This document shows, one piece after another, positions 1 to 20,025 of a stretch of DNA of 64,000 bases (position 1 is its first letter; each line of letters begins with the position of its first letter). Origin of the DNA: Chytridium lagenaria (lineage: Eukaryota; Chytridiomycota; Chytridiomycetes; Chytridiales; Chytridiaceae); assembly GCA_025449115.1 (NCBI GenBank), contig JAHLKC010000076.1, forward strand, positions 62,001-126,000, in the 5' to 3' direction. The notes beneath the pieces were generated by a model. It saw only the letters and a program-made list of their open reading frames with translations, made no database searches and was not told the DNA's origin. Both the position numbers and the translations under genes were made by a program.

Positions 1-120
1 AATAATGCATATTAAATAAAGGATTTCTTCTCACTATGTAAATGTCTAGCTCGAATTCGAAATCGAGGTTTTGGGGTGGCAGGTGTTTTATATAAAAAGA
101 TTTTTGTCTAAAACAACAAG

Positions 121-709
121 GGTATCGCTTGCTTGGAGGGGAGGGGTGGGGTTATTGTGGATGATGATATGAGGACAAGTGATCCGTTTGTGTTTGCCGT
201 CGGCGAGGTGGCTGTGCATAAGGGTATGCAGTATGGGCTTGTTGCACCAGGGTATGATATGACAGCTGTGGTTGCAAAGGCTTTGATGAAGGAGGTCAAG
301 GTGCCGAAATTTAAAGGTGCTGATATGTTGACCAAGCTCAAGTTGATGGGGGTGCATGTGGCGAGTTTTGGGGATTATTTTGCAGATGAATTGAAATGCG
401 TTCCTCTGACTTTTCGTGATCCATTCGGTAAGAATTATGTGCTTCTTGTTTTTTTTTCTCTACAGTTTTTTAATTTCTACACTCAACGTCTTTTTCCTTT
501 GTTTATATGAAAATCAAACAGCTGGCATCTACAAGAAATTCTTGTTCAACATTGCCGGCACTAAACTCCTCGGTGGTATTCTCGTCAGTGACACTACCGA
601 CTACAGTAAACTCGTCTCCCTCTCCAAATCCCACAAGCCCCTCACCTCCCCACCACACACCTACCTTCTACCCAAACCACTCTCCACCTCCTCTACCGAC
701 GAAGTATAG
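121..709 (+). pseudogene. nitrite reductase large subunit (NirB-like) fragment
   Basis: The frame matches the end of the FAD/NAD-binding half of assimilatory NAD(P)H nitrite reductase. It contains the TSD..VFAVGEVA FAD-binding signature, then GLVAPGYDM, then GADMLTKLKLMGV. After a 94-bp GT-AG intron (428-521) comes GIYKKFLFN..LLGGILVSD, the usual order in this family. Splicing restores codon phase exactly (g|ct). The frame is open from about 112, and an acceptor-like AG at 119-120 suggests an upstream exon, so the N-terminus may lie left of the window. The frame stops at 709, before any [2Fe-2S]-like or siroheme/4Fe-4S domain, so the catalytic half is missing and ankyrin coding follows at once. 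It is either a truncated relic or a chimera with the ankyrin gene. The family call is strong; the status as a functional gene is doubtful. Confidence 0.72.
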
Positions 710-1709
710 GAAATGACGACCTTTTGGATCTATGCCTCTGCGCTTGCCGTTTCGGTGCCTCCTCGATTCTACCGCTTTTATTGCAACGCCTCCATCAAAC
801 CCCAAACCTCAACTTCATTCCCACAGGCACCACCTGCCTCACCAAATCCGCCTCCCGTGGCCACGCCCTCTCCGTCTCGCTCCTCATGTCCGCTTCCATC
901 TTACCATCAAGCCATCTCCTCGTCATGGCCGCCCGTCGCGGTCACGTAGACGTTGTTGATCTACTCCTGACATCTCGAAATGTGGATCCTAGTGCGTTTG
1001 ATTTAAAGGCGTTAAGAGTTGCTGCTGCGCATGGACAGGATAGAGTTGTGAAAAGGTTGCTTGAGACGGGGAGAGTGGATCCGGAGTCGGCGGATAATGT
1101 GGCATTAAGGAGAGCGAGCGAGTATGGGTTTAAGGAGGTTGTGAGGATGGTGCTGGATACGGGGATGGCGGATCCGGAGGCAGAGGATAATATGCGATAC
1201 GGTGGGCGGCTGTGAATGGGCATTTGGAGGTGAGTTAAAATATTTATTCATTCTTATTCCACCGTGTTAGGTTATTTCTCCTTTTTTTATTTTTTAATAG
1301 TGTTCTGACTTTAAAAATAATATCTAGGTCGTTAAAATGCTAATAGCATCACGAGGAGTCAACCCTGCAGCATGCGGCAACCTCCCCCTCATCTGTGCCG
1401 CCCAATCCGGCCACCGCGCCGTCGTCAAACTCCTCATCGACACTAACCGCGTCAACCCCGCCGCCTGTCGCGGACAAGCTCTTAATCGGTCCGCCAGCAA
1501 CGGCCATCTCCCGTCGTTCTCGATTGTGAAGAGATTATTAGAGACGAGGAGGGTTAATCCTGCGGATGAAGATAATATGGCGATATAATGGGCTGCAGCG
1601 AACATGTGGAGACTGTTAAAGTGCTTCTTCAAGCAGAAATGAAGCGTCAAGAAGAAAAGGGGACTCGTTGTATTGCTGTGTTTAAACCTTATCATAATTT
1701 TTGCGGGAT
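710..1709 (+). pseudogene. ankyrin-repeat protein, 5' part, interrupted by retrotransposon
   Basis: About six degenerate ankyrin repeats are visible, for example A.RRGHVDVVDLLLTS, AAAHGQDRVVKRLLETG, ASEYGFKEVVRMVLDTG and AAQSGHRAVVKLLIDTN. A GT-AG intron (about 1230-1327) joins NGHLE to VVKML. Two one- or two-base frame breaks occur, near 1192 and 1590-1605, each just after a DNMA-type repeat end. The last readable segment (about 1608-1709) continues in frame to the retrotransposon junction. The reading frame resumes after the element at 17796, so this and the 17796-18378 piece were probably one gene. Ankyrin repeats are protein-binding scaffolds; no specific partner is evident. A start codon is not clear: the frame is open from before 703 and could be read from the nitrite-reductase fragment after a frame change. 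Confidence 0.7.
1706..1709. repeat. target-site duplication (left copy, GGAT)
   Basis: GGAT directly precedes the left LTR, and GGAT at 17792-17795 directly follows the right LTR. A 4-5 bp duplication is normal for Ty3/gypsy integrases. It shows that both LTRs belong to one insertion event. Confidence 0.8.
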
Positions 1710-2652
1710 TGTGATCTTCTCTTGACCCATCCCTCCCTACCTAGCTTCGACTAGGGGGTAGGGGAGAAGAGTAAAGGAGTTGCTCCAGCAGAGCAAGTCC
1801 ACAGAGCACCTAAAGGACGGATGTACTCCGCCGTCTAAGTGATGTTAAGTTTGTTGTTTTGGCTGTGTGTGGTAGTTTTTCGCGAGTTCTATTAAATAAA
1901 AGGGAGATGGGAACGGTTTTAGTATCTTTCATTATCGACTTACCTTGCTTCTAAACCAATATCGGCACCAGATCGTCTCCTGGCGATCGGGATGGCTGAA
2001 AGCCTCCTTGCCTTCCTGCTATGGCACCTTTTGGAACGTGAAGATCTCGTTGCCTCACGAGCTGGCACAGGGTAACCTCACTCATCACCTGCCTGCAGCG
2101 TCGATCACCGGCTCGGGGATCATCAGAGGTGGAATGTAGCCGACCAAGCCTAAGCTAAAGGACACTGACAATGAGGAGGACCCTTGGGCTCCCATCGCAG
2201 CCTTCTGCTTCAAACAGCTGGATTGCGGCTTCACCAGGTGGCAGGGGGGTAGAGGGGTGGGCTGCCATCCAAGAAGGAGTGAAGTGAGATCACGGCGAGG
2301 CCACGCGCGTGAGATAGAGGATGGGGGATCAACTCAATATCAATTACTTAATTCAACAGGTACAAATTAAATCAAGAAATCTCTCATATTAAAGTAATAC
2401 ACAAAATACAAATAAATAATAGACACAACATATGCACACACACATAAACGGCACATATGCGCGCCACCTCCTTCAATAAAAACCCTATAAACGTGGGGAA
2501 AAACTATATATAAAAAACCCAAAGGGAAAAGAAGGGAGGATTCAATATGACGCGTAAATATACGCGTCGACGCGGGATATAATGGAACTCAACGGACTTA
2601 GACAAAATGTCCTTATGAGCCATAGGCCATGTGAATAATGTAATTCTTCACA
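1710..2652 (-). repeat. 3' LTR (left)
   Basis: It is 943 bp and is bounded by TG...CA (TGTGATCT...TTCACA as read on the plus strand). It matches 16853-17791 along its whole length, differing only by single-base indels (for example six versus five G near 2245, five versus four T near 1876). On the element's coding strand it is the downstream LTR, because the polypurine tract abuts it at 2653. Confidence 0.95.
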
Positions 2653-2666
2653 TTCTCCCCGTTTTT
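2653..2666 (-). other. polypurine tract (plus-strand primer)
   Basis: On the minus strand AAAAACGGGGAGAA lies immediately upstream of the 3' LTR. A purine run at exactly this place is the standard primer for second-strand synthesis in LTR elements, and it fixes the element's orientation. Confidence 0.75.
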
Positions 2667-2698
2667 AAGAAAAGACAATTACGTGAGAAAAGTCTAAC

Positions 2699-3930
2699 TT
2701 AGCTGTCAGAAGTATAAGAACTATCTGTGAATATATCAAAGCTTGCATTATCGGCAAGTCTATAAGGCCAAGTATTGGCAAGGGTTATATAATTGTTACC
2801 GCCTAGCATCTCTATAGCTAGTGGTACTTCAAAGTTATTATCAGGATAATCATCATCAAGATGATTATCTATATCAGGTTCCAACTGAGGAACGTCATTA
2901 TCAATAGCATTCTGGTTATCAGAATCTATGGGCACAGCCTGCCGTAAAGTACGTTTAGCCTTGCGCTTACGTTTCTTTATGGGGCTAGGAGGAGTATCTT
3001 CAAGGATACCATCATCTGCATCCTCACTACGATAACCATCATTATCTTCAGGCAACGTGTAGGATGTGGGCTTAAGCGCAAGTCTCTTGCGGCCAGTATT
3101 CTTCTCATACACTACTCTGAGAGCATATGCTGTGGGCTGTGTTTTAGCAACACGGTCCCAGTAATCTTTAACTATGGATGGGGGTAAGGCTTCTTCATCC
3201 ATTAGAAGGTTATGCGCGGTTCCATGACCGAGCCATTTAACATAATACTTATACTTTTTGTTATGAGTATCATAAGTATGATAATCCAGTTTCTCAACAT
3301 AGAACTCAGGATCATTATAGTCGGCATCAGCGACTTCTTCATCGAATCGTCGAAACAGTTCGCGATTAACTCCAACAGCTACCTTATTCTTAGGCATGCG
3401 TCTAATAACTTGGAGTTCTTTCCATGCTGCAATCTCAGCAGCAAAGTCATCTGAAGCTACTTCTGCAGATGCAGCATTAGCAGTTTCTGTAGGCGGCAAA
3501 GACTCAAATGGTCGGAGTCTAGCAGCATTAGCAAGTCGTGATAAGAGCTGGCCTCCAGGGAGGAGCTCTACAACTGTGTATCTATTGCTGTCCATAGATT
3601 TACTAAGGACACGCATCGGGCCAGCCCATCTAAATTGGAACTTCTTAGTGGGGGCATTCTTGTTCTCTTTCCCTCGACGTTCAGTCTTCAAGGGAACAGA
3701 GAGCCATACCAGGTCGCCAACATCAAACGAGTGTTTGTTGCGACTGGGTTTATTTTGTTGCGCTCGTCTCTTGCGTTTGAGTTCTGCACGCAGAGTACAG
3801 CTTTTGAATAGGCTAGTCTAGCAGCTAGCTGAGTAACATAATCTTTAGCCTCCAAACGATCATCTTCATCGTTGAGGGATTCTTTGACGAAGTCCTGAAG
3901 GGCTTGTCGAGTATTCATGAGCACACTCAC
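2699..3930 (-). CDS. integrase C-terminus, GPY/F module and chromodomain
   Basis: This is the 3' end of Pol, read as two overlapping minus-strand frames (3688-3930 and 2699-3691) joined by a one-base change at an AAAA run near 3808. The first part has the helical stretch DYVTQLAARLAYSKA, typical of the segment after the integrase core. Then come FDVGDLVWL and a GPY/F module (WAGPMRVL, residues 18-62 of the second frame). A chromodomain follows at residues 127-177 (FYVEKL...YYVKWLG). Of the three methyl-lysine cage positions, F130 and W153 are aromatic but the third is His156. A tail of about 150 residues, acidic and basic, follows. Chromodomains in such elements direct integration to marked chromatin. 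Confidence 0.85.
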
Positions 3931-3944
3931 ATGTGTGTCAGTGT

Positions 3945-6900
3945 CTATATCATCTTCAGGGGAACATAGTCATCCTGATCGTCATTGACTTCAAGTTCAA
4001 TGATTCTCACATGCCGTGCAGGTCCATCGTCAACAAGGGGACGGCCAGCATTGAGGTGTGTAATATCTGGGGAAAGTACCAGAGTGTCGTTGACATATAA
4101 GTTCATGGCGTTGTCAACAAATATGGGGTAACTGTCACGCAAATGAGGGCGTTCAGTCGCACAGCCATTATGAATAATAGATACATAGGCATCTTTTTCT
4201 TTCCCATGCAGGGTCGTTTTCACTTTACGAGTTAACGAATGCATCTGGGAAGATTCATTCCTTCCAAAGGATCTCCATTGGAAAGTGTGTCCCAGTCGCT
4301 TCATCGCGTGGATGTGGACAAGGTAAAATAGATCATAACCATATTTCTTAAGGACGTCAGCTATGAGCAAGTAAGGCTCTCGACCATCAGTCCGAGCAAG
4401 TCCATGAGCAGCTCGCGCTAAGCGGCCGTCAAAGAAGTGTAGCTGTTCAGAGAACATAGCAAGTATTTTAGGAAGAGCCTCTGCAGTGCCTCTAGTGGTG
4501 GAAACAGCTATCAGAGGTTCTTCTCCTGTCTGAGCCCATAATCGTGGGTCAGGATATTCTTCCGCAAACACATCGTCTGTGGGATAACCAAACTTGAGGT
4601 CAGCCGGCGTAAACGCCTCGCGGCCAAACATCATCATGAATGGGGTTTCATTAGTGGTCTGGTGGACCGTTGTTCTGTATGCAAACAACACATAGGGGAG
4701 TATTTCATCCCAATCGTCATGTGTTCTTTGGTTTATATATGCACGTATCATCTGGCATAAGGTTTTGTTTGTTCGTTCCACTAAACCGTTGGCCTGAGGC
4801 CAATACGGCATAGAGAAGGATTGTTTCATTCCTAGTACAGTAGCAACTCTCTTAAAGAGGTCACTAGGAAATGGTTGTCCTTGATCCGAGTGTAAGGTCA
4901 AGGGAATTCCAAAGCGGCAAAAGCATTGCTCAACAACTATTCTAGCAATGGTGTTTGCTTCTAAGTCGGGGACGGCGAAAGCATCAGCCCAACGGGTAAA
5001 GTAGTCTGTGAGGACAACAATGTACTTGTTGCCACGTTGGCTAGTGTTCATAGGACCAACGATATCGATGGCAACACGATCCCAAGGTCTATGACCAAAG
5101 GGTATGGGCCTCACGGCACCTTTTCTAGTCAGGTTATCTTTAGATTGTTGACATGTAGGGCATCGTCGTATATATGCCTCTAAGTCTTTTTGGATAGTAG
5201 GCCACCAAAACCTATCTAGGGTAGTGGCGATAAGTCTGCGAACACCGAGGTGTCCTCCAGCCATCATATCATCATGGACGGCGTCAAACGCAATGTCCTG
5301 AAGTCTTTTGGGGACACATAAAGCGACTCGCACTGGCGATCGTCGCATAAGGTAGTCCTTCACATAGAGTACACGGTAGAGAACTCTACCACGCATCACC
5401 ATATTTTGGGCGTTCATTAGAACACCTTTCCTAAGATCAGGATCCTCAGGAAGGATTCCTTTCTCTAGAAACTTGATGACTTCGGTAAATCTCAAGTCAT
5501 TTCTTTGGGCTTTAATAAAGTCACCAGATATCTGTCCATTAGCCATGAAAGCATTGGGAACAGTATTTGAATTCCTATCATGTGCAGAAGGCCCGGGGTT
5601 GTTTGGGGCTTCACGCGGTGGCTCTTGATCAGGGAAGTCAAGTGCCGGTAATGAGATCATGTTGTCATAATCGTTGTGGTGAGCATCGCTGTGCTCTAAG
5701 ACCAATTCAACCATTTCATGGTCAGTGAGTGACGCCACAAAATGGTGGTTAACATTCCATTTGCAAGGAATTCGTTTATCTACAAAGGCATAGTCTATTC
5801 TCCAAACAGCTTTATAGAACTCTGTTGGATCATGCCAAGTATATCCTGGCGTATGCGGATGGCTATGACGAAATCCATCCTTAAAACCTAAATTAATGAA
5901 TGAGCTAAGCCAGTAGCGTTCATCGTTGCGGAATCCAGAGTATCCATAAAATCTGGATGGTTCTCGAACATCAATTGCTTTGTGAGCAATATTGAAATCG
6001 CCTACAACAATTGTATTTGACTGAGCTTTGAGGCTCTTTACAAAAGTATGTAGTCGTTCCAGGAACTTCATCTTGTATTCCTGTCTGTGATCATGCCTCG
6101 TGCCATTTGGCGCATAGACATTCACTATATTCATACCTAAAAGGCAGAGAGTAAGGCACCGTCCCTCTTCGACAAAGTCGTCGAAGTCAGTGCGCATCAT
6201 ATGAGTCCCACATATCACTGAAAGTACGGGGATATCTTCGCGGACCATGGTCATAACACCATTATGTCCATTTCTTTTATCGTCAGCAAACATCTTCCAT
6301 CCGCGGACGGACTTTAGTTGTTGCCAAAACTTTTCATGACCATCGCCGACCATAGTCTCTTGGAAGCAGGCGATGTCACATTCCATTTCATCCAAATATT
6401 TAGCAAAGAACTCTGCTCTATTGGATTCATCACCTTCAATTCTCTTTGCAAAGTGTTTCTTAACAAGAGCTTGAAGGCTATTCACATTCCAACTTATAAT
6501 CTTCAGCTTGGAAGAGCGGAATGGTGTGTGTATATTATCAATGGGATATAACCTTTTCATTGACTCTGGTGGGAAGTCATGGATCATACGAGAAGGAACA
6601 TCAGGCACAGCCGTCGTTCTCTCAACGCCATATATCTCGCGTAGAGATGGGAGTGAGTCTGCAGTTGTCCTCTTTTCATTGAGGGGTGAGAAGAGCTCAC
6701 GTATCTCAAGTATTTCATAAGCATGAAAACTACTTAGAGATTTTGGACCAGTGTCAGGCACTGGGTAGTTTACAGCATCTGGTGGTATACCAGCATTAAC
6801 TGTTATGACATGGGTAATTTGTCCAGGTATGTGCCTAGGTGCGCGAGAGGAGTTGACCTCAGGATCAGGCACCTGGCAAATCCAGAAACGGGTAGTTCCT

Positions 6901-7346
6901 GTGAACTCCCGTTTTTGATATTCAAATAGTCTGCGTCTCTCGAGAATGTCCTTCAATCGAGATGACTTTATCCTGACGAAGACATTGTCAATGAGCTGTT
7001 CAGGGAAGATAACTTCACTGGAAAGCAATGGTCGATCAGATCCAAACTCCCGTTTTTGAGAAGGAGAAAAGACATGGGCGGGTGGGTGGGTATAATCAAT
7101 GCTAAGCGCAGAAGTTATAGTTTGCAAAAGTTCTTTGTTCTTAACTTTAGCATCTTTTCCGATAAAGACTCGAGGGGCGGTCTCAGGGAAGTCGCCGACC
7201 TCTGAGTCATCATCAGGTATAGGCTTTGGGGGTTTGAAGCTGCGTGAGAGAGCGTCGGCAACGGCCTGGCTCTTGCCGGGAACATGAACCAACTCAATCT
7301 CATGATCCTGTAGAGAGTATGACCATCGGGCAAAGCGGCCTTTCAA
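3945..7346 (-). CDS. pol: Pol 3' part: RNase H end, APE endonuclease, integrase
   Basis: A single open frame of 1,133 codons. Residues 1-35 end RNase H (VADALSR). Residues 36-280 match nothing I recognise. Residues 281-552 form an ExoIII/APE-type endonuclease. Residues about 553-680 are linker. H691, H699, C729 and C732 form the integrase zinc finger, and D761, D821 and E857 the D,D(35)E catalytic triad. Residues 935-1122 are a second unrecognised block. The frame stops at 3945, but a one-base shift at a CCCC run continues it into the next Pol segment. The start given is a frame boundary, not a translation start; the upstream RNase H lies in the overlapping frame 7343-7546. Cytoplasmic particle and nuclear functions are expected. 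Confidence 0.92.
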   Translation of the reverse strand: MKGRFARWSYSLQDHEIELVHVPGKSQAVADALSRSFKPPKPIPDDDSEVGDFPETAPRVFIGKDAKVKNKELLQTITSALSIDYTHPPAHVFSPSQKREFGSDRPLLSSEVIFPEQLIDNVFVRIKSSRLKDILERRRLFEYQKREFTGTTRFWICQVPDPEVNSSRAPRHIPGQITHVITVNAGIPPDAVNYPVPDTGPKSLSSFHAYEILEIRELFSPLNEKRTTADSLPSLREIYGVERTTAVPDVPSRMIHDFPPESMKRLYPIDNIHTPFRSSKLKIISWNVNSLQALVKKHFAKRIEGDESNRAEFFAKYLDEMECDIACFQETMVGDGHEKFWQQLKSVRGWKMFADDKRNGHNGVMTMVREDIPVLSVICGTHMMRTDFDDFVEEGRCLTLCLLGMNIVNVYAPNGTRHDHRQEYKMKFLERLHTFVKSLKAQSNTIVVGDFNIAHKAIDVREPSRFYGYSGFRNDERYWLSSFINLGFKDGFRHSHPHTPGYTWHDPTEFYKAVWRIDYAFVDKRIPCKWNVNHHFVASLTDHEMVELVLEHSDAHHNDYDNMISLPALDFPDQEPPREAPNNPGPSAHDRNSNTVPNAFMANGQISGDFIKAQRNDLRFTEVIKFLEKGILPEDPDLRKGVLMNAQNMVMRGRVLYRVLYVKDYLMRRSPVRVALCVPKRLQDIAFDAVHDDMMAGGHLGVRRLIATTLDRFWWPTIQKDLEAYIRRCPTCQQSKDNLTRKGAVRPIPFGHRPWDRVAIDIVGPMNTSQRGNKYIVVLTDYFTRWADAFAVPDLEANTIARIVVEQCFCRFGIPLTLHSDQGQPFPSDLFKRVATVLGMKQSFSMPYWPQANGLVERTNKTLCQMIRAYINQRTHDDWDEILPYVLFAYRTTVHQTTNETPFMMMFGREAFTPADLKFGYPTDDVFAEEYPDPRLWAQTGEEPLIAVSTTRGTAEALPKILAMFSEQLHFFDGRLARAAHGLARTDGREPYLLIADVLKKYGYDLFYLVHIHAMKRLGHTFQWRSFGRNESSQMHSLTRKVKTTLHGKEKDAYVSIIHNGCATERPHLRDSYPIFVDNAMNLYVNDTLVLSPDITHLNAGRPLVDDGPARHVRIIELEVNDDQDDYVPLKMI
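4647..5309 (-). other. integrase zinc finger and DDE catalytic core
   Basis: Residues 680-900 of the same frame. The zinc-binding H-x7-H-x29-C-x2-C is intact, as is the D,D(35)E core with IDIVGP, HSDQG and NGLVERTNK. It would cut and join element cDNA into host DNA in the nucleus. No damage is visible. Confidence 0.93.
5691..6506 (-). other. ExoIII/APE-type AP endonuclease domain embedded in Pol
   Basis: Residues 281-552 of the 1,133-residue frame. Motifs in order: ISWNVNSL (N287, N289), CFQET (E330), GVMTMV, GRCLTLCLLGMNIVNVYAPN (Y411), VVGDFNIAH (D450, N452), IDVREP, GFRNDERYWL, FRHSHPHTPGYTWHDP, RIDYAFVD (D518), SLTDHEMVEL (D542, H543). These correspond to the metal-binding and catalytic residues of ExoIII/APE1 (Asn, Glu, Tyr, Asp-x-Asn, Asp, Asp-His). 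The GF..ER and RH.HP..PGYTW stretches are typical of cellular repair enzymes (ExoIII, APE1, APE2) rather than of LINE endonucleases. The domain is in frame with integrase and undamaged. The likely activity is AP-site incision or 3' end cleaning on DNA; the role in the element is inference. Confidence 0.9.
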
Positions 7347-8879
7347 ATCACCTCTAGCAAACAGGGGATTAAGGCTGAGTGATCAGTCTCAATGCGGTAT
7401 GGTTTACGCCATGTGTAAGTCTCAAAGAGGTTTGAAGACCACACAACAGCGAGACCCTCGCGGTCAGTGTTAGAGTAGTTCTGCTCAGCATCGTTCAACG
7501 TGCGTGAGGCAAAAGCTACAGGATGGTATATGCCGTCGCGATTCACAAAAGCGCAGCACCAATTGCGTACTTAGAAGCATCGCAAGATATGACGAATTTA
7601 TCATCTGGTAATGGAGTTACTAATAGTACCTCAGATTTGAGAATATCTATTAAGCGTCGAAAGGCTGCTTCACAGGAAGCAGTCCAGTCAAATGAGATCT
7701 CTTTGCGAGTGAGATCATATAATGGTTTTGCGACGTCAGTGAAGTTGGGTACAAACCGTCGAAAATAATTAGTGAAACCAAGGAATCGTTGAATATCCTT
7801 GACTGTTTTTGGTATAGGCCAATCTTCAAGCTTCACAAGCTTATCAGGATCTGCTTTTATCCCGTCTTCAGAGACGATATGACCTAGGAAGGGTAAGACC
7901 TTGAAAAGGAACTGACACTTCTTAGGCTTAAGCTTAAGGTTATACTCATATAATCTATCAAATACAAGCTGAAGATTCTCGAAGTGGGAATCCACATCGG
8001 TTGAAAATATGATAATATCGTCTATGTACACCATACATTTGATCCACTTTATTCCAGCAAGGACTAAGTCCATGCATCTCTGGAAAGTGGGTGGACTATT
8101 TGTGAGGCCAAAGGGCATCACGTTGTACTCATAGAGTCCATCTGGGGTAACAAAGGCGTTTTGTGACGATCCTCTGGGGCTACAGGTATTTGCCAAAAGC
8201 CGAGAGGAGATCAAGGGATGAGAAGAGACACATCCCGGCTAACCGATCAAAGGTCTCATCAATACGTGGTAAAGGATACTTATCCTTTATTGTATCTCAT
8301 TGAGGCGACGAAAGTCGGTGCAGAATCTGTCAGCACCATCCTTCTTTTTCGCGAGACACACGGGAGATGCGTGAGGAGAGCGCGACTTCCTGATGACGCC
8401 AGTCTTAAGCATTTCCTCGACATGGTCGCGGATGATCTTAGCACGCTCTAAACCAACAGGGTAAGGAGCCATGTTGGGAGGACGAGAATATGGTTTTGTT
8501 TCAATGGTATGGTAACCAGGGTCCTTTGTGCCTGTTCTAACGTATTCACGAAAGACATTAGGTTTTTAGGAATTGATAAGAACTGGATGAGTCGCTCACG
8601 CAGTTGCATATCAGTAATGTGCTGAAGATCAAACTTCTTCAAGAGATCCTCAGTGGATATAGGATCCATGTTCTTAAGGTAATCCATGCGATCCTCATTC
8701 GTGGTGTCATGAGGTCTATGACGGGAGGGCTCTTCCAAATCAGGGCCATCGTCAGCTGGAGTTTCTAGAAGAGCTTTTGTGACAAAGTCAGGAAGAGGGG
8801 GAATATCAGGCATGGAGCCGTATCCTTCGTCGACCGGATCTAACTCCTTTTGGAAGTCGGATATTCGTGTCGGGCACAT
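7343..8879 (-). CDS. pol: Pol 5' part: reverse transcriptase and RNase H
   Basis: Read across frames 8448-8879, 8287-8472, 7543-8214 and 7343-7546. RT signatures are [49 protein letters not shown] and the catalytic YIDD, followed by LGHIVS. RNase H has [21 protein letters not shown] and ETDHSAL, and finishes in the next frame with ADALSR. All key acidic residues are present. Frame changes lie near 8570, 8290, 8190 and 7545, mostly beside short homopolymers, and the conserved sequence continues smoothly across each. They therefore look like indel errors or very recent mutations rather than decay. Confidence 0.9.
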
Positions 8880-10039
8880 CCAAGAGGGGGTCTCGAGACT
8901 CCTCTGGTGGAGTTTGCTTTTTCAAGCTTGTGTAAGGTAGAAGTACGTTACTTTGGGGTACTTCCCTTTATCGCTGCTCTTCCTAAGAAGGCGGCGGGTG
9001 TCAGCACGACTGACTTTTCTCTACCATCGTCATCAACAGCACCAATGCCATTAATAAGAAGGTTGAGATGGTTTCCAAAATCTTGGAGTGTTTTAATCCG
9101 CCTATTTGCGGTGACCTCTGTTTTGATATAGAGGCATGCGGCAGGGTCATCCTGATCATCCTCATGAATGGGGATGAAATCAGTGAACTGTTGTTTAGGG
9201 TCGTCATGAACATACCCAAAACACGTTCCTGGTGGTAAAGAGGTCTGGAAAGGTCCTCGATGACCAACCTGTAGAGGAATGGTTCCATGTCTGGTACAAG
9301 ACGACCATTGTCGCAACGTACGGGCCTGCATTCCGTTGGGAAACAGGTCTGCGTGTGAGTATACGGTCCTTTCCGCGTCAAAGTCAGTAAAGTCCTGACG
9401 AGGAAGAACGGTGTAGTTTGCAGAAGGAACGTCTGGCAGCCTATCAAAAACACACCACACGGTTGTCCCGTAATCAGGATCGAACTGAGCCTCCTTAGCG
9501 AGGACAATTCGTATGTAGGGTGACTTACTCTTGTAAGTGAACCCATTTGTTATTACCTTCAAAGGTGTCTCGTAAGCTTTTACCTTTCTACCTTTAAGAG
9601 TAGGGGAATAATAGAAGTAGCGTAGTTTGTGAGAACTAGCTAGAATATCCATGTGGAAGGCTTGCACCGTTGGCATGCCAAGAATCACTGGCCGCGGACA
9701 GTTTTCTACTATATAGAAAGGAAGTTTCTTCCTAACTCCAGGAGTAATTCCAGGAGATACGTTGAGTCTGCATATTCCTAGAATACGCTCGCGTCCACCA
9801 ATTCCATTAGAGAACTTTGGGTAATTAAATGGAGTGATATCAAACTCAACTCCACGTGAATAAAGATCCCGTAAAAGAGATTTGGTTACTAGGTTACCGT
9901 CAGAGCCTGTATCGACCAAAGCGTCACCAATATGAATGCCGCCTAGGCTGCAACAGATCTGAGCTATACAAGGGGTATCACTCTCAATGAGCTCCGAGGG
10001 AATCTCGTCGACGATGACTGGATCGGTTTGACACTCCAT
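8880..10039 (-). CDS. retropepsin-like protease region of Pol
   Basis: The open frame runs from 10039 to 8948. The aspartic protease motif ALVDTGSDG is at residues 40-48 and the second signature VILGMPTVQ at 118-126, as in Ty3/gypsy proteases that dimerise to cleave the polyprotein. After the protease a further 220 residues have no recognised domain. Frame changes at CCCC/AAAA runs lead upstream into Gag (about 10045) and downstream toward RT (about 8940), so Gag, protease and RT were probably one polyprotein. The start at 10039 is the first Met in frame and need not be used. Confidence 0.85.
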
Positions 10040-10104
10040 TTCCCGAGTATTTTACTGGGTGAACATAGTTTCTGGGGAACTTTGATGCTTCCGCAACGCT
10101 CATT

Positions 10105-13100
10105 TCATAAAGGTTTGAAACCTGTGTCATCACCTGAGTGAGTACCTGAGGTTCGTTGTCTGTTTGGCAAACCCTTCGCTAGTGCTGACGTGTGTATTAA
10201 TACCAACGACACCTTTATTGGAGTTTTACTCGTAGAGTCAGAACCAATAGCTTGATGCAAGGCAAGCGACGGGCCCGGGTTGTTAAGGAAAGCCGCAAGA
10301 TTAACCTGAGTGTAATCAGGGAGGGTGGGCAGGGAAATGCTTTTGGCAGCGAGAGTAAGTGCTGACTCGCGAAGAGCATTCGTGATTGCAATAGGTTGAG
10401 AGTTGCGATGGCGACGAATATAGGGGCTCGTAGCAAAAAGAGCCCGTATAAACGGCGCAATAGGAGGGGTAGTCGTAATTGTACGGACTTGGTACAAGGT
10501 GAGAGGTATTGGAACGGGAAGTTCCGAGGTAACCGGCACAAGTTCATGTGTTTGGTTGATAATATCAACATATGCAGCGTCGGTTTTAGAAGAAACAAAC
10601 CAAGCGGTTGAATATTTGTTTTGCTCTCGAAAAAGGATATGCAAATTGGGAGCATACTCCGAATTAAGAGAGGGTTTTTAATGCTTAATTGTGTTAAGTG
10701 CGATAACGCGGATGGACGCGTTGAAGGTTGGGTGATTACGATTGCATCTGTTGGATACGCCAATAAAGCAATAATAAACTTATCTAGTTCATCGTCATCC
10801 GTCGGTATGTAGATATACGGATGCGGTAAGTCTGGAGTGGAATTATCCACAATATTACCAATGTTGATAAAAGGGACAGAAGTAGGGAAAGAAAAACATT
10901 TATTCTTTGGATTCCATACTACGGAGGGCACTGACATAAGATTTTCAATGAAATAACAACCCACGGCATATATGAAGTGAAACGGAACTTCATAAAATGC
11001 CTTCACAACCTCATGAACCTCAGGGATCACGGCTTGTTGAGTTGGGCTATTGAAAATAGAGTCAGTATGGGATGAAGGGTCGGGGATCTTACCTGATGAA
11101 AGCAGGCGAGACAGAACTTCATCTTGGTCTTCAACCTCGGCGAAAGGCCTGCCACTAAAAGGATCGAAAGCAAAAAGCTGGTAATAGTGAGCAGGAAATC
11201 GACGAGAAGAAGAGGGAGTAGCCGGTCCAGCTGAAGTAGAGCTGGTAGCCGGGCGATCACTGGCGGCACCATGAGTATTCATGGTAGCAGGGTTGGAGTT
11301 ACCTCCATCATTAGGGGCGTGACCAACGGGGTATGATGCCTGGTAAGCACCACGTTGGTCACTGTGTCCAGAGCCTTGGCGGCTGCGGTTATAATCAAAA
11401 CTGTTGGAACTACCTTGACGGGAGTGGTTGCCAAAGTCATTGTTGCGGGGAGGGTACCCCTGACGGTAAGGCTGGCGCTGGTATGGTTCTCGAGCGCCAT
11501 TCTTAATCATTTCAATGTCGGCGCGAAGGCTAGTCACGTCAACCTCGGATAACTCGGCATCACCATCAGAGTGGAGGACGGAGTTTAAGGTAGTAACGTA
11601 CGTGTTTAACGTACGATTGACGAGTTCGTCGCTCATGTTGGGGAAAGGCAACGGAAGGTCGGTGTTCTTAGCGATATGAACCATGAGGTTATCGCGAGTA
11701 TTGGGTGTCTTCTTTATTTCACGACGAAGTCGGATAACTTCGCGTTGTCCATCAGAGACTGCTTGAGACAGAGACTCAATTTTCTCTGAAAACGCCTGAA
11801 CAATGGCGGCAGTTTCGGAGGAGGTATCCAAAGATTTCACCAAACGAGGGTGATGAAGTTGCATGTGGTCGACGATGTCGTCGGCACTGACATCTTTGTG
11901 GTCCCATTTACGTCCAGAGGTAAAGGTTTCCTTTTTGACGAGGGACTTCCAACGGTCATCTTGGCATCCTCGGATGAGGATATCTTTAAGCTTTTCGTCT
12001 TGAAGACGGTTAGAGGATGGTAAAGACGTATTAAGGTACGTCAACTTATTAAGAGCTTCAAGTGGGCTCATACGCGAGGTATCCCACTGAAACTGTTCAA
12101 CCTTTGTGGCAAGGTCAGTCACGTCGGTATTAGGTGCAAAGTTACGACGGAGAACCTTTTTAAGTTGCTCCAACGTCGTCTGAGCTCTGGGAACAAGGTG
12201 AGCTACAGAGTCGACGGGAGGCTTCAAGTTGATGGCTGGATTCCATGTAACGCGAAAAGCGTGTTCCAGATCATCAAAAGGACGAGCAAGGTCCGGTTTG
12301 TTAGGGTCATTAACATACTGATCGAGAATGTTCTCAATCTTTGCAATGAAGCGGTAAATGGCCGCCGGTTGAGGGGAGTCCAGAACCACGGTTGCCATAT
12401 CATCTTTGGCGCTCTTGGCGGTCATGCCGTCTTTAATCTTACCAAATCCAACCAAAGAGGCGGAGGAAGAAGAACGGGAAAACCCGCCTGGACCTGCAGC
12501 ACCGGACATATCGACGGGAGCAGCTGTTTGTACTGGACTAAAAGTAGTAGTTACAGTAAGTAGAGACGACGAAGCCGTCGGAATGTTGACTGGAGTCGGA
12601 GCTGTAGTCAAAGGAACGACAAGGATGTCGGGTTCGTTGGGTTCAGCGGGTGGGGCACTTACACGCGGAATCCAAGCAATACTGGAAGACAAAGCTTCTG
12701 GGAAGATATCACGAGCACTCCTCAAGTTGGAGAATACCTGGCGAGATAAATGGGTCTTGGGCGGAAACCAAGAGGATTAAGAGTGATACCGGCAACTGGA
12801 GAGAAGTCCGGTTGGATGGAGGGAGAAAAGAGTGCCGACTGAAAAGCAGTAGCACTTAACTCAGATGTTGACAAGGATTCGTCAAGAGTGTCAGCTGAGG
12901 CAGAAGCCTGGGCTGTGTGGTTTGGTGGAGCGAGAACGGTCGCAACGCGAGGGTTCAAGACAAGCTCCAAATGAAAAGGGGCTTCAAGATGACGTGGGGC
13001 CGTGATAACGGGGCCAGCGTGAAAAGAAGCACGAGATCAGCCCTATTAATAGGGAATCGCGATGAGAGGCAAGGTAATCTAACGATGCAATCTCACGGCG

Positions 13101-13382
13101 ACCTGATCTGGAATAGGTAACAGAAGGGAAGAAAATGTCGCTAATTGAAAAGAGACTAGGATGAAAAAGAACAGATCCTTCCTCAGTTATCGCGATCACA
13201 AGCTGTAAAGTCGTGATTAAAGGCGGGGGAACAGAATGGCTTGCAAAGTTAGCAGCAACAAAAACAAACCACCAGTAAGGCTGTCGGATCACTGGACCAC
13301 GATGGATGGCAGTGATTAATGTAGCTTGGAAGAAGAATGCGTCAGAAGAGCGTTCGAGGGTGAAATGGGGGTAGTTCTCCAT
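10105..13382 (-). CDS. gag: Gag-like polyprotein without zinc knuckle
   Basis: Read across frames 13382-12984, 12970-12722, 12777-10680 and 10644-10105. The proposed start is Met at 13382 (MENYPHFTL); an alternative internal Met lies at 12509 (MSGAAGPGG). A helical capsid-like region follows (ENILDQYVNDPNKPDLARPF, LEQLKKVLRRNFAP, MSPLEALNKLTYLN), then a coiled stretch, then an R/Q/G/N/S-rich disordered segment (QRQPYRQGYPPRNNDF). No CCHC knuckle is present; nucleic-acid binding may rest on the basic glycine-rich segment. A long C-terminal part with Pro/Thr/Ile-rich sequence is unrecognised. Frame changes are near 13000, 12785 and 10680; the last sits at an AAAAACCC run. Confidence 0.75.
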
Positions 13383-13602
13383 ATCTCTTACTTTTCTCAA
13401 CTCTACAGCAAGCGAGAATCGCGAAAATCTTAAAGAAAATCTTCGGTTTTTTGCAGTATTTAACGCGTTTTTGTGTATAATAAAGATCACGTTTTGGGAT
13501 AATAAATGCTCTATCTTTATTCTATGGTACTTCTTTGTTACTTATTTTGACTTATAAGAAAGAGTAAAAGTGAAAAGGTAAACGCGATAAATCGCATTAA
13601 CC

Positions 13603-15520
13603 CTATTCGGTGTCCTTCTCGAGGCTAGTGATAGAATCACTGCCAGCATCACTAGCTTTGGCACTGATGGGAGAAAACTTTGGCGACGTGGAACGCGTCG
13701 AGAGGGGTGATTCGTCAATAACCACAGCTTCGACTCTCATGAGCCTTCTTAACGCAAGCGCATGGGAAGCGACGGCGTTCAATACTTTTGCGACGTTCTT
13801 CGTTACAGGGGTCATTGTTTTCTCTCGAGACGCGACAAGACGAGCCTTGTATTCTGCGAGGCTCACCTTCTGCTTGACTGAAGCTGAAGCGGCGGCCATG
13901 GCATCGGCAGGTGGGAGATGTCGACGAACCAAGCAGTGATGAAGAGGTGGCAACCACTTTGTCTTTGGCTTGTATCGAGACGATGCAGGCGCGTAGTGAG
14001 GTCATCAACGAGCATACCATGGTGACGAACGCCACGAGGAGCACGTAGAGGGAGGGCAAGAGCCTTGCCTTTAACTTGACGAGGGTCAGGAGGTTGGTCA
14101 GATGCATCTGACTCGTCGTCACTAGCATTAACGGAACCACGAGAGGCGGTTGTTGTATCCGTCGTCGTGTCAAAGGTGTTGATGGCTTCATCAGAGGAGG
14201 TCATACGTGTCTTTGTGGGTGTGATGGGATCGCGGCGTTTCTCAGAGCGGCAGCTGGAGGAACCACGAGGCTCAGGAGGTGAGGCGGCATAGCTGGCATG
14301 TACTACCCTGCTTTAAACCAGCCTCAAGGTCGTGTAAGCGATCTGACTGTCCAGAAGTGAAGCCGCAAGCTCTCGACGAATGGAGACAAGAGGCGTCGGA
14401 AAACTTCTTCTCAGGCGCAAGTTCCTTGACAGTTAATGGAGCAAATCCATCAATAGCGCTGATGCGAGCACTGGTCTCCACAATCATCGTACGAATCTTT
14501 ACGGCGGTGTTGTGCAGGTATTGGCGTCGTTGCGTCACCAGTGAGATCACAGAATCCAGTTCTGGCTTCGGTAAGTAGGGTCCCGGTTTAAACGAGACTC
14601 GTTAAGGTTACGTCAACCTCCAGGACCTTCAGTCTATCAGCCATCAAGTGGATGACGGCGATGTTGGATCGACCACTTCCCCAACTCCTTTTCACGTCGA
14701 GTTGAGGCTTGGGAGGTGGTTTGAGGAGGAGGAACGACAGGGAGAGCTGGCGCTCGGCGTTTAAGGATGATAACGCGAGGGTCAAGCTGTCCAGCGTTCC
14801 GTTGGCGGATGGCTTCTTCAAGTTCAGCCCCGGTAAGTTCTTCCAGAATGGACGGATTATCTTCAGGTTGGAGAAGGTAGATCTCCTCATCCTGCGAGGG
14901 CTGTCCAGTCTCTTCCAAAGAATTGCGTCGAACATCACGAGGGACATAGGAAGATTTAATGCCGTCATCGGCGTCGCAGTCCATGGGCTCAAGAGGCCCC
15001 GACGAGAAGGGTTGTCTTACACTCAACAGGGCGACGAGAGGAGGAGGCGACTTGAGAGAGGTCGTTTTCATCATCACTATCGACAATGATGGTCGTTTTG
15101 GCGGCTGCAGCTGCTTTTACGACGTTTTGTTCACTGGCGGGGGTCCAGGAGGAGGAGGAGGTGGGGGAGGCATGCGACCAGCCTCCAGAGCTCTCTGATG
15201 CTGAGCGACGGTCCCACGGGAATCCAGGATCAGAATACCAAGAGACTTGCACTCCTCGTTGGAGAGGTAGCGTTCATCGAGCTCTCCCTTCCTGCGAGGT
15301 CTCTGATTGCGCATGGAACCGATTAAGGTTCTCGTGACAGAAGGGGATCCCCAGCAGAGCGTTCATGGCACGGAATTGAGCCATGATGTTGTTGGAGAGG
15401 TCCTTAATGATGGGAAGGTCGGTGCCTGCCTTCAGCGAGAGGAGGCGCGCGTTTTCAGGGATGCCGGCTCCGTTGAGCCTGGGGCGAGGTTTCTTCTTCT
15501 CCACCCTTCTTTGTTGGCAT
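13603..15520 (-). CDS. ORF0: extra protein upstream of Gag, frame-interrupted
   Basis: From an ATG at 15520 (MPTKKGG) a protein of roughly 640 residues can be followed to the stop at 13603 through about seven frame changes. Visible parts are an N-terminal segment with LSNNIMAQFRAMNALLGIP, a polyproline run PPPPPPPPGPPP, an acidic SUMO-interacting-type motif TTIIVDSDDEND, a Glu-rich segment (ILEELTGAELEEAIRQRN), a Cys pair region (CLHSSRACGF...CQLC), Ser/Asp-rich sequence (VNASDDESDASDQ), and a C-terminal helical part (KARLVASREKTMTPVTKNV). I do not recognise a family. It lies between the leader and Gag, where chromoviruses normally have no gene. The continuity is inferred from composition and spacing and needs a corrected sequence. 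Confidence 0.5.
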
Positions 15521-16852
15521 GGTGTTGAGGGTTTCCAGCTTTCCCGCTGGTGTTCTTCTCAGTGGAGGCGTTGCGAGGGCTCACTGATGAAAGTAACAAT
15601 CATCAAAAGGTGATGTTAATAAAGATGCAAACACAACATAAATGGTTTGAATGATGCGTTGGTGCTTACTCTTTGTGTGAAGACTCCGATGGATGGTTGT
15701 CAAATCTTTTCAACAATTAGACAATTTGTTGTAATAAATGAAATTTCATTTTGAGCTCTTTGCGATGGGAGGCAACTCACGCCAAATGGCGTGAGCTGTT
15801 CCCCATCACCTTGGATTCGTTAATTGTCATTTATATAATTAACGGATCAAACAGGGGTGGCTTTGGAGGATATAGAGCTATAAATCCTCCCAAGCCGTCC
15901 CGAAATTATCCTTGTTTTTCGAAAATATTTTCGAAGTCTTTTAATATTATTAATATATTAATAAAATATCGTCGAAAACAAGGAGTTTTCGACGAGAACT
16001 TTTGTGAATTCTTAACAATTTCTTATAACGAATCCGAAATGCTTTACAGCAACGTTTTAAGGCCTATAATGGCCGAGATCCTGCGGGACCACCTCTAGCT
16101 TCGAGGTTTTGGGCTAGATAGGGTGGTTCCACAGGGTGGTTTTTCAAAATGAAATTAATGTGTGTGATGTTTTGATCAAACATCAACACTAAAAATGCCG
16201 ATCGGCGTCAATATTGACGCTAGAGAGCCCGTTCGACAGCGCAAATGATGTGCGCCGGACGGCGCATCTTTTGATATAAAAAATCGAAAAGAGTTTCTAA
16301 TTAAAAATAAAGTTTCTATTTAAAGTCTATAAAAAGGCATCCTAGAAGGCCGCACTTTTCACAGGATATAGACCAGAGGTCCAGGATGACGACAAAGTCG
16401 TCAAACAAAAAGGTTTTGTTAATAAACAATCGAAAAGGTCGAAAGTTTAAGTAACAGGTTTTCTTCTTTTAAGGATCTGGGCGCTCCAGCGCGCAAATCA
16501 AGAAGGGTTTTTTCACATTATGCTAAGCTTAGGGGGCGAAAGATCGCGGCCTTAGCCAAAGCTGTGAAGGTGGGGAGGCTCTGATGCCCATGCAGTGGCT
16601 AGGGAGGCTACTAGAGGGTCCCGGAAGCAGCATGGTGACACCAAAATGGACAATGGCCATGCAGAGTGTCAGGGGAGTCCCCTAGCACCAATGCAAGGCC
16701 ACCACCAGAGCTCCAGAGACAGCGGGAACGCGTCCACGTTTGTCCAGGGCGGGGGTGCCGATAGGTCATCGAAAAAATCCAAAAGGAAATAACGAAAACC
16801 AAAGAGAAATCAACGAAAACTCACCAGACACCTTTTTAGGTTGGGCCCCCAC
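15521..16852 (-). other. retrotransposon 5' untranslated leader
   Basis: This 1.3-kb stretch between the 5' LTR and ORF0 has no convincing ORF. It is rich in perfect palindromes (15737-15750, 15776-15795, 16197-16206, 16205-16220, 16251-16266). RNA dimerisation, packaging or translation control is possible, but nothing in the sequence proves it. Confidence 0.6.
16839..16852 (-). other. candidate primer-binding site
   Basis: On the minus strand GTGGGGGCCCAACC directly follows the 5' LTR. TGG one base after the LTR fits pairing with a tRNA CCA end, but I cannot assign a tRNA, and self-priming as in Tf1-type elements is an alternative. Confidence 0.35.
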
Positions 16853-17791
16853 TGTGATCTTCTCTTGACCCATCCCTCCCTACCTAGCTTCGACTAGGGG
16901 GTAGGGGAGAAGAGTAAAGGAGTTGCTCCAGCAGAGCAAGTCCACAGAGCACCTAAAGGACGGATGTACTCCGCCGTCTAAGTGATGTTAGTTGTTGTTT
17001 TGGCTGTGTGTGGTAGTTTTCGCGAGTTCTATTAAATAAAAGGGAGATGGGAACGGTTTTAGTATCTTCATTATCGACTTACCTTGCTTCTAAACCAATA
17101 TCGGCACCAGATCGTCTCCTGGCGATCGGGGATGGCTGAAAGCCTCCTTGCCTTCCTGCTATGGCACCTTTTGGAACGTGAAGATCTCGTTGCCTCACGA
17201 GCTGGCACAGGGTAACCTCACTCATCACCTGCCTGCAGCGTCGATCACCGGCTCGGGGATCATCAGAGGTGGAATGTAGCCGACCAAGCCTAAGCTAAAG
17301 GACACTGACAATGAGGAGGACCCTTGGGCTCCCATCGCAGCCTTCTGCTTCAAACAGCTGGATTGCGGCTTCACCAGGTGGCAGGGGGTAGAGGGGTGGG
17401 CTGCCATCCAAGAAGGAGTGAAGGAGATCACGGCGAGGCCACGCGCGTGAGATAGAGGATGGGGGATCAACTCAATATCAATTACTTAATTCAACAGGTA
17501 CAAATTAAATCAAGAAATCTCTCATATTAAAGTAATACACAAAATACAAATAAATAATAGACACAACATATGCACACACACATAAACGGCACATATGCGC
17601 GCCACCTCCTTCAATAAAAACCCTATAAACGTGGGGAAAAACTATATATAAAAAACCCAAAGGGAAAAGAAGGGAGGATTCAATATGACGCGTAAATATA
17701 CGCGTCGACGCGGGATATAATGGAACTCAACGGACTTAGACAAAATGTCCTTATGAGCCATAGGCCATGTGAATAATGTAATTCTTTCACA
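16853..17791 (-). repeat. 5' LTR (right)
   Basis: It is 939 bp with the same TG...CA ends as the left LTR. By position it should hold the element promoter, reading leftward. Relative to the left LTR I count eight single-base indels and no substitutions. Confidence 0.95.
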
Positions 17792-17795
17792 GGAT
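17792..17795. repeat. target-site duplication (right copy, GGAT)
   Basis: Direct repeat of 1706-1709, immediately outside the right LTR. Confidence 0.8.
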
Positions 17796-18378
17796 CATTA
17801 AAACAAAAACGAAAGTTCCGACTGAACCTACCATCCCAGAACCTTCGCTTTTGGATCAACCCATCCCCAGATTTCTTTTCACCTTCTACCCCTTCGAGAC
17901 CCTGCATCGCGTCGTAAAATCCCCCCAAATCCCACCACAACTCTTCTTCGTCGCCTCCTCCCCTCCTCTCGCCGCATCGATCCCTCTGCCGACACCCATT
18001 TCGCCATCCGCGCTACCTCCCTCAACGGCCATATTGACGTGGTCCGCGTCCTGCTCTCAACTAAACTCGTGGATGCTGACGCTGCAGCGCAGCATGCACT
18101 TGTGACGGCGTGTGTGGCGGGACAGGAAAATGTTGTGAAAGTACTATTAGAGGAATTCAAGGCTATGCCGACTGTTGCGGCGCTTTTGTGGCGCGGCGGA
18201 TGCCGGAGCGGTGGGGATTGTGAAGAGGGGACTTGAGAGTGGACGGGTGGATCTAGAAGCGCTTGGCGAGGTTGTTGCGGGCAGGGGAGGTGTGGATGGA
18301 GGGATGGGAAGGATTGGTGGTGGGGCGAGTGGCGAGGCGTGGGGGGAGGTTGTAAGGGCCATGGGAGAGGCGGTTTAA
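17796..18378 (+). pseudogene. ankyrin-repeat protein, 3' part after the retrotransposon
   Basis: Joining 1709 to 17796 (one GGAT copy removed) leaves an uninterrupted codon phase across the target site (NFCGI followed by IKTKTKVPTEP). The protein continues through FYPFETLHRVV and, after a one-base shift near a CCCCCC run, into ankyrin repeats FAIRATSLNGHIDVVRVLLST and ALVTACVAGQENVVKVLLEE. A glycine-rich end follows and stops at 18378. This supports a single ankyrin gene split by the element. A further one-base shift near 18170 separates the last repeat. Confidence 0.65.
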
Positions 18379-19079: not shown

Positions 19080-20025
19080 CCTCACAGCCCTTCGCTCCAG
19101 TCAAGGACATTAAACATCTGTGAGACCGTCTCCGCTCTCATCCCCAGGTCTTTGAGATAGAATCATTCTACCGTTCCCATGGCCACTCCTACGATCCCTT
19201 TTCAGGCCCTTCTTTATCCATGGACGACGTTGACAACAACGTCAAAACGTACACATTTGCTTTCTATCAACAGCCATGTCCTGTTCCTCTGATTTCAACA
19301 TGGAAGGAGATGACATTGCGACATGGGGTGAAAGTTGGAAATGCGGGGAAGGTGGTGGTGTCGGGACTACCAGGGATGTCGTCGTTGATTTATCGAGTAT
19401 TGCTGAGGGAAAAAACATTTTTTTTCCATTATAATTTTGCCCCATTCTTCCAAGCGTATATTGCTTCTTGCAATTAAGGCCTGCATATCAATATGATTAT
19501 TTTTTTTGTTTGTTAGCCCACTTGTTTATTTAACGTTGGTAATTTTTCGGCAACAGACCATAGCTCTCTTCTTGTCCCCAACAGCCTCACATCCAGTATC
19601 AACGTCCCAACATTGTAAGTTATCCTCTCCCATCACCAGACTCATCTTCTCCAGCACCGACACAAAACCGCGCCTTCCGTCCCCTTTTCAACGAACCAAC
19701 CAAATCCATGACCCTTCAAATCGCCGTTTGACGCACGCCAAAAAAAAAAAAACGTCGTTACGCACAATCTCTCACGTCATGGATCTGCGTCGTTTGCGGC
19801 ACTCTGAGATGTATCGGGGAGTCCCGAGTATGGGTTTTGGGAACATCATCGGAGACGGTTCAAGACTTAAATGGGTGAAGATGAGGTGCTAAAGGCGGGT
19901 GAGGGTGGGAAGGAAAATGCGGAGAAGGAGCCGTGTGAACGAGATAAGAGGCTATTGCGTGGTGTGTTTATTGATGTTATGATTATGATTTTGGAATCTG
20001 ACTTGGCACAGAATCTATGTAGATG
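19080..20025 (+). CDS. hypothetical protein, fragmented
   Basis: Protein-like plus-strand segments are HPQVFEIESFYRSHGHSYDP, then VKTYTFAFYQQPCPVPLIST and KVGNAGKVVVSGLPGM up to about 19405. After an intron-like stretch (to about 19556) comes SSLLVPNSLTSSINVPT, and near the end EDEVLKAGEGGKENAEKEPC then RLLRGVFIDVMIMILESD, stopping at about 20025. A stop at 19119-19121 and several frame changes prevent a firm model. No family is recognised. Its 3' end lies in the first copy of the 102-bp repeat. Confidence 0.35.

What the first reader, a model, noticed from the sequence alone, without database searches (positions are those of the whole stretch)
5691..6506. AP endonuclease fused in frame inside an LTR-retrotransposon polyprotein
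Seen: one open frame of 1,133 codons runs from the end of RNase H through a complete ExoIII/APE domain into an intact integrase zinc finger and DDE core. All catalytic positions are present (N287, E330, Y411, D450/N452, D518, D542/H543). Known: Ty3/gypsy elements integrate with a DDE integrase and carry no such enzyme; EEP-type endonucleases belong to non-LTR elements or to DNA repair. Inference: the domain resembles cellular repair enzymes (GF..ER, RH.HP..PGYTW) and was probably captured from a host. It could trim cDNA ends, remove AP sites or uracil-repair products from cDNA, or open target DNA as a second integration route.
Basis: partly seen in the sequence, partly recalled or inferred. 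Interest (0 to 1): 0.92.

Follow-up and report, generated by a model that had tools for sequence, protein, structure and literature searches.

The report
Retrotransposons carrying a DNA-repair nuclease
Many Ty3/Gypsy-type jumping elements in this eukaryotic genome carry, between their RNase H and integrase, a preserved enzyme of the kind cells use to cut DNA at missing bases, which suggests that these elements bring their own DNA-repair tool along when they copy themselves.

Summary
Confirmed, and not a one-off. An ExoIII/APE1-family (EEP) domain lies in frame between RNase H and integrase of a 16.1-kb LTR element. In the host genome 48 of 84 integrase zinc-finger matches have an EEP domain 280-513 bp upstream; RNase H to zinc-finger gaps are 199-496 bp without it and 1,222-2,545 bp with it. 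Other copies show RT-RH-EEP-H2C2-rve in one frame. Catalytic residues are nearly invariant; the four pairs with enough changes give dN/dS 0.04-0.10. The domain keeps APE1/ExoA-type residues that three LINE endonucleases of the same genome lack. The main EEP group joins neither those nor the host's APE1, so a recent capture of host APE1 is unlikely. Reverse transcriptases place carriers in two lineages (long-branch warning). Most likely it repairs AP sites and blocked 3' ends in element cDNA; that role is inferred. Gypsy elements with captured cellular enzymes are known, so this is a new variant of a known kind.

The parts
5691..6506 (-). ExoIII/APE1-family EEP domain, catalytic residues present
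   Evidence: Pfam PF03372; TIGR00633 160.4 bits; PDB sequence matches; residues
3945..7382 (-). open frame: RNase H tail, linker, EEP, H2C2, rve
6507..7265 (-). linker between RNase H and EEP, no Pfam match; 25-37% identical to four relatives' linkers
5136..5315 (-). integrase H2C2 zinc finger
4800..5093 (-). integrase DDE core (rve), D-35-E spacing kept
3152..3298 (-). chromodomain-like stretch, below the Pfam cut-off (14.1 of 25.1 bits)
7543..8238 (-). reverse transcriptase piece and start of RNase H
7346..7570 (-). middle piece of RNase H in another frame
9671..9946 (-). aspartyl-protease-like stretch, below cut-off (21.9 of 24.3 bits)
10215..12776 (-). long frame at the place of gag; no family match, gag by position only
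1710..2652 (-). 3' LTR (943 bp)
16853..17791 (-). 5' LTR (939 bp)
1706..1709 (.). GGAT, one copy of a likely 4-bp target duplication
   Evidence: read
17792..17795 (.). GGAT, other copy of the likely target duplication
   Evidence: read
16839..16851 (-). likely primer binding site next to the 5' LTR (minus strand begins TGGGGGCCC)
   Evidence: read; no tRNA was matched to it

Best explanation
This is a Ty3/Gypsy-type LTR retrotransposon whose Pol protein carries a catalytically intact ExoIII/APE1-family nuclease between RNase H and integrase. The arrangement is old, is repeated in many families of this genome and is kept by purifying selection (shown). Most likely the nuclease repairs the element's own cDNA in the virus-like particle or pre-integration complex: it would cut 5' of abasic sites and clear blocked 3' ends, activities established for the APE1/ExoA/Mth212 family (recalled). 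That would leave 3'-OH ends that RT or a host polymerase can extend, and intact LTR ends for the DDE integrase (inferred). Integration itself stays with the DDE integrase (inferred from its intact core and the short target duplication).
For: Identity: TIGR00633 above cut-off; a profile of six retro EEPs scores H. pylori XthA, B. subtilis ExoA and M. mazei ExoIII chains at 158-161 bits, APE1 chains at about 124-134, LINE-1 endonuclease at 50-53 (organisms named). Fixed architecture: 48 of 84 H2C2 matches and single frames. Catalytic positions nearly invariant. dN/dS 0.04-0.10 in four informative pairs, integrase 0.11 in the one pair compared. EEP distances follow integrase (r 0.861) and RT (r 0.853), 0 of 2,000 shuffles as high. 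Residues equivalent to APE1 E154, R156 and R177 in 10 of 10 retro rows; aromatic at 266 in 8 of 9 and at 280 in 8 of 9 rows with a letter there; three LINE endonucleases of the same genome lack E154, R156, R177 and an aromatic at 280. Integrase spacing intact in the window copy.
Against: No activity was measured. No AP-site-specific feature separates repair of cDNA from general 3' trimming. R177 is not universal in cellular enzymes either (host APE1 K, 5j8n M, L059 S), and APE1 Y269, M270 and N226 are not kept in the retro rows. The predicted model is weak around residues 175-190, 218-236 and 255-262, which include part of the supposed pocket. L026 has C at 266 and 280. No DNA glycosylase was seen or looked for in the element.
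Confidence: 0.5

Rival explanations
1. The nuclease works in reverse transcription proper: it trims cDNA 3' ends or removes leftover primer RNA, so that integrase gets precise LTR ends; AP-site cleavage is secondary.
For: ExoIII-family enzymes have 3' exonuclease and some RNase H-type activity (recalled); the slot lies between RNase H and integrase.
Against: The elements keep their own RNase H; other Ty3-type elements of the same genome lack EEP (36 of 84 H2C2 matches).
Confidence: 0.22
2. The nuclease nicks target DNA, giving a LINE-like second route of insertion, or opens target DNA for integrase.
For: Same fold superfamily as LINE endonucleases.
Against: Not LINE-like on the tree (100/99 for the LINE clade) or at diagnostic columns; integrase looks intact; the window copy has full LTRs and a 4-bp duplication.
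Confidence: 0.13
3. The fold is kept for binding or tethering (RT, integrase or host repair proteins), not for catalysis.
For: EEP differs faster than integrase and RT (1.53 and 2.22 times).
Against: Metal-site and catalytic residues are nearly invariant although the rest of the domain is 32-49% identical between families.
Confidence: 0.06
4. The segment is an assembly join, or a LINE fragment nested in an LTR element.
For: Frame breaks upstream in this copy and small gaps between its LTRs.
Against: Same order at 48 places and in uninterrupted frames; not LINE-like; third-position GC of EEP is close to that of integrase or RT in three elements.
Confidence: 0.01

Closest known systems
Ty3/Gypsy LTR retrotransposons, chromodomain-bearing branch
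   Same: LTRs, RT nearest to Ty3 among solved structures, RNase H, H2C2, DDE integrase, weak chromodomain match
   Different: an EEP domain plus a linker between RNase H and integrase
KnitGypsy-Dnmt3 of Klebsormidium nitens (PMC5890265, passages seen)
   Same: a cellular DNA-modifying enzyme inside the Pol frame of a Gypsy element, kept under purifying selection (paper gives Ka/Ks below 0.2)
   Different: a methyltransferase, not a repair nuclease
Gypsy elements with an added RNase H in oomycetes and plants (PMC5348765, passages seen)
   Same: repeated, convergent capture of a nucleic-acid enzyme in Pol by separate Gypsy groups
   Different: the added domain repeats an activity that the element already had
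Kuafuorterviruses of animals (PMC11673190, passages seen)
   Same: the paper reports Exo_endo_phos in some members, possibly host-derived
   Different: said to be sporadic; here the domain is fixed in many families. Its position there was not seen
APE1 / bacterial ExoA / archaeal Mth212 (ExoIII family)
   Same: fold, catalytic set and family model
   Different: part of a retroelement polyprotein; several APE1 DNA-contact residues differ
LINE APE-type endonucleases
   Same: same superfamily, also in retroelements
   Different: separate clade and different diagnostic residues
dUTPase of non-primate lentiviruses (recalled, no call)
   Same: an enzyme guarding cDNA quality between RNase H and integrase in Pol
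   Different: acts on the nucleotide pool, not on DNA

Membership tests
Ty3/Gypsy LTR retrotransposon | two LTRs with a short target duplication | tested here: met
   LTRs 939 and 943 bp; GGAT on both sides read, one copy only
Ty3/Gypsy LTR retrotransposon | RT of Ty3 type | tested here: met
   L011 RT: Ty3 chains best in PDB, 184.7 bits; the window's RT piece groups with these carriers
Ty3/Gypsy LTR retrotransposon | order PR-RT-RH-IN | tested here: met
   RT-RH-EEP-IN in L011 and L012; protease match in the window below cut-off
Chromovirus | C-terminal chromodomain | tested here: inconclusive
   matches in L011 20.7-23.2 bits, L012 18.7, window 14.1, cut-off 25.1
ExoIII/APE1 (xth) nuclease family | family model above cut-off | tested here: met
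   TIGR00633 160.4 bits, cut-off 99.05
ExoIII/APE1 (xth) nuclease family | catalytic residue set | tested here: met
ExoIII/APE1 (xth) nuclease family | AP-endonuclease activity | not testable with these tools
   needs an assay
LINE APE-type endonuclease | groups with LINE endonucleases | tested here: not met
   three LINE endonucleases of this genome form a separate clade, 100/99
Recent capture of the host's APE1 | groups with the host's APE1 | tested here: not met
   main group + host APE1 rejected, p-AU 0.0156
Single origin of EEP-bearing elements | carriers form one RT clade | tested here: not met
   p-AU 5.7e-12 for 13 carriers against 9 non-carriers and Ty3, with a long-branch warning

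The most novel reading that the evidence does not exclude
Two separate Ty3/Gypsy lineages of one host installed an AP endonuclease in the same RNase H-integrase slot, by two captures or by exchange of a module, giving retroelements that carry a base-excision-repair step of their own: convergent selection for cDNA repair as part of LTR retrotransposition.
Probability: 0.35. Interest if true: 0.82.

Novelty: new variant of a known kind. Interest (0 to 1): 0.7.

Why it matters
LTR elements are generally taken to leave repair of gapped or damaged cDNA to the host (established view, recalled). Elements that keep an AP endonuclease next to integrase would mean that lost bases or blocked 3' ends in cDNA limit their spread enough to fix a repair enzyme in Pol, and give a natural system to test that. 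They also show that an APE-type domain in a retroelement does not by itself mean a LINE; the passages seen in four papers tie the domain to LINEs.

Tried and rejected
Rejected: LINE fragment nested in an LTR element; assembly join; recent capture of host APE1. From the frames I first took the host APE1 for a dead enzyme; the DNA shows GT-AG introns and intact motifs, so I dropped that. A weak PD-(D/E)XK match in the linker of L015 (23.3 bits, cut-off 27) did not recur in the four other linkers.

Scans of viral contigs found no relative. The single-sequence scan of prokaryote genomes found none; the profile scan gave 6 bacterial loci of 36 candidate stretches. Of 50,697 phage records 12 match, all under 60% identity. 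Paper searches and reading timed out; 75, 76, 78, 79, 80, 81 and 88 ran. The term 'exo endo phos' could not match the underscored name; one search mended this. One search opened an unrelated paper through a wrongly guessed identifier.

Left open: the place of the second lineage's EEP (L027, L032): with the main group only 30/76; with APE1 rejected (p-AU 0.0264); four other placements not rejected (0.257-0.36). Two captures against an exchange was not decided.

Full report
What is in the window. The finding lies in an LTR retrotransposon on the minus strand, 1710-17791 (16.1 kb). The LTRs (943 and 939 bp) run TGTG...CACA and differ by a handful of 1-2 base gaps and at most two mismatches that depend on gap placement. 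GGAT stands on both outer sides. The insertion is therefore young. Frame 3945-7382 (1,145 codons) holds the end of RNase H, a linker without family match, an Exo_endo_phos domain, the H2C2 zinc finger and the rve core. The domain at 5691-6506 matches the ExoIII family model at 160.4 bits, cut-off 99.05, and solved ExoIII, ExoA, Mth212 and APE1 chains. RT and most of RNase H of this copy are in other, broken frames. A model from 7 sequences (pLDDT 72.2, pTM 0.78) is matched best by Mth0212, APE1 and ExoA, TM about 0.68. Three segments of the model, including 218-236, are below pLDDT 50, so it says little on the pocket.

It is a trait of many elements. The host genome (41.9 Mb, 356 contigs, unnamed) gives 151 matches to the domain, many of them fragments, and the listing is cut. 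I merged these and the family matches by hand into 77 places, leaving out the host's own APE1 and APE2 genes (C71, C26) and one further weak place (C118). Of 84 H2C2 matches, 48 have an EEP place upstream on the same strand, at 280-513 bp although up to 2 kb was allowed. With EEP the gap from RNase H to H2C2 is 1,222-2,545 bp (30 of 48 have an RNase H match within 5 kb); without it 199-496 bp (26 of 36). 29 of 77 EEP places have no H2C2 match within 2 kb; I did not examine why. Frames that join domains: L011 RT-RH-EEP-H2C2-rve and a below-cut-off chromodomain, L012 RT-RH-EEP-H2C2-rve, L013 and L023 RT-RH-EEP, L018 EEP-H2C2-rve, L027 RH-EEP-H2C2; L022 EEP-H2C2-rve, L028 EEP end (below cut-off)-H2C2-rve, L029 RT-RH-EEP start. 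In L015 no EEP match was found in the RT-RH frame; its EEP pieces lie in other frames.

Catalytic state and selection. Across open pieces (several loci are near-copies, L005 and L030 are the same place, and L001, L031, L033 and pieces under 25 bits were left out) the positions equivalent to APE1 residues read: N68 27 of 27, E96 28 of 29, Y171 31 of 31, D210 31 of 31, N212 32 of 32, D283 30 of 30, D308 28 of 28, H309 28 of 28. I compared 23 locus pairs. Four give a finite EEP dN/dS with at least ten synonymous changes: window-L005 0.10, window-L006 0.04, L013-L018 0.04, L027-L032 0.10 (the last with dS 2.74, near saturation). Five EEP pairs with at most four synonymous changes give 0.20-0.84 or no value; the other EEP pairs are saturated in dS; one pair gave nothing. 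Integrase of window-L005 gives 0.11; RNase H of L013-L016 gives 0.60. EEP distances follow integrase (r 0.861, 14 loci, 84 pairs) and RT (r 0.853, 9 loci, 34 pairs), with 0 of 2,000 shuffles as high. So the domain has travelled with its elements for long; its distances are 1.53 times those of integrase and 2.22 times those of RT.

Which nuclease it is. A profile of six retro EEPs scores three prokaryote ExoIII-type chains at 158-161 bits (8igi, 5cfe, 5j8n), a chloroplast AP endonuclease at 140.5, APE1 chains at about 124-134, exonuclease III 1ako at 83.5, 6wcd at 78.1 and LINE-1 endonuclease at 50-53. In an alignment of 18 rows, the 10 retro rows all keep E154, R156 and R177 of APE1; 266 is W in 8 of 9 rows with a letter, 280 is W or F in 8 of 9, N174 is kept in 8 of 10. 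Exceptions are L026 (C at 266 and 280) and the second lineage (A at 174). The three LINE endonucleases of this genome keep none of E154, R156, R177 or an aromatic at 280. Against a simple reading, R177 also varies among cellular enzymes, and N226, T268, Y269 and M270 of APE1 are not kept in the retro rows. On balance the residues point to AP-site and 3'-end chemistry rather than LINE-like nicking; this is inference.

Origin. On a tree of 35 rows the 19 retro EEPs are one side of a branch (71/84), 17 of them a supported clade (99/97), and LINE endonucleases a clade of their own (100/99). On a tree of 24 rows without LINE and APE2, the main group (10 rows) is supported (99/97); joining it with host APE1 is rejected (p-AU 0.0156), with four eukaryotic APE1-type rows too (0.0416). 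The second lineage (L027, L032) cannot be placed: with the main group 30/76, with APE1 rejected (0.0264), four other placements not rejected (0.257-0.36). For RT, 22 of the 31 loci with an RT match were used (three dropped by name, six too short in one frame), plus Ty3: 13 carriers do not form one clade (p-AU 5.7e-12) and need two changes; the program warns of long branches. The integrase tree of 28 rows needs three changes, of which supported branches force two. In L027, EEP sits about 50 residues after RNase H and about 90 before H2C2, so both lineages use the same slot. Two captures, or one capture and an exchange, remain possible.

How it probably works. Shown: position, in-frame fusion, catalytic set, repair-type residues, purifying selection, integrase core, LTR pair with a likely duplication. 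Inferred: that the domain is active, that it acts on element cDNA, and that AP-site cleavage and 3'-end cleaning are what selection keeps.

What is known. Passages of a survey of fungal LTR elements (PMC3248453) and of a chytrid genome paper (PMC9926174) describe Gypsy elements and, in the passages shown, no such domain; PMC9926174, PMC4112212 and PMC5014426 use 'apurinic' endonuclease for LINEs, and PMC10799480 assigns Exo_endo_phos to LINEs. PMC4226871 and PMC9141347 mention it only as a search term or for non-LTR elements. Precedents: Dnmt3 in a Gypsy Pol (PMC5890265), added RNase H (PMC5348765), sporadic Exo_endo_phos in kuafuorterviruses (PMC11673190). For these ten papers I saw passages only. 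Of the seven searches that ran, searches found no paper; one search found 54 (30 listed), 60 (20 listed), 26 and 8. The library holds open-licence papers only and most listed papers were not opened, so an earlier description cannot be excluded. I file this as a new variant of a known kind: a Gypsy element with a captured cellular enzyme.

Noticed in passing
L027, L028, L029, L032, L034: A second, RT-divergent lineage of elements with the EEP domain in the same slot; its integrase matches are weak to the main-lineage model and its RT groups with a non-carrier, L052.
   Followed up: partly
window 12777-16852: About 4 kb between the 5' LTR and the gag-like frame hold only short overlapping frames; unusually long leader, content not explained.
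   Followed up: no
L015 5496-6149 (-): Linker between RNase H and EEP has a below-cut-off PD-(D/E)XK nuclease match (23.3 bits, cut-off 27); not seen in four other linkers.
   Followed up: partly
window 1710-2652 and 16853-17791: LTRs differ by small gaps rather than substitutions, which suggests length errors in the assembly.
   Followed up: partly
L031 about 100-1250 (-): The host's own APE1 gene with several short GT-AG introns, read by eye; V at the APE1 D70 position.
   Followed up: partly
window 19867-20388 (-): A frame with about three near-identical tandem stretches of some 30 residues, seen by eye.
   Followed up: no
window 610-1215 (+) and 17826-18236 (+): Ankyrin-like repeats by eye on both sides of the element; the element may have landed in or between such genes.
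   Followed up: no
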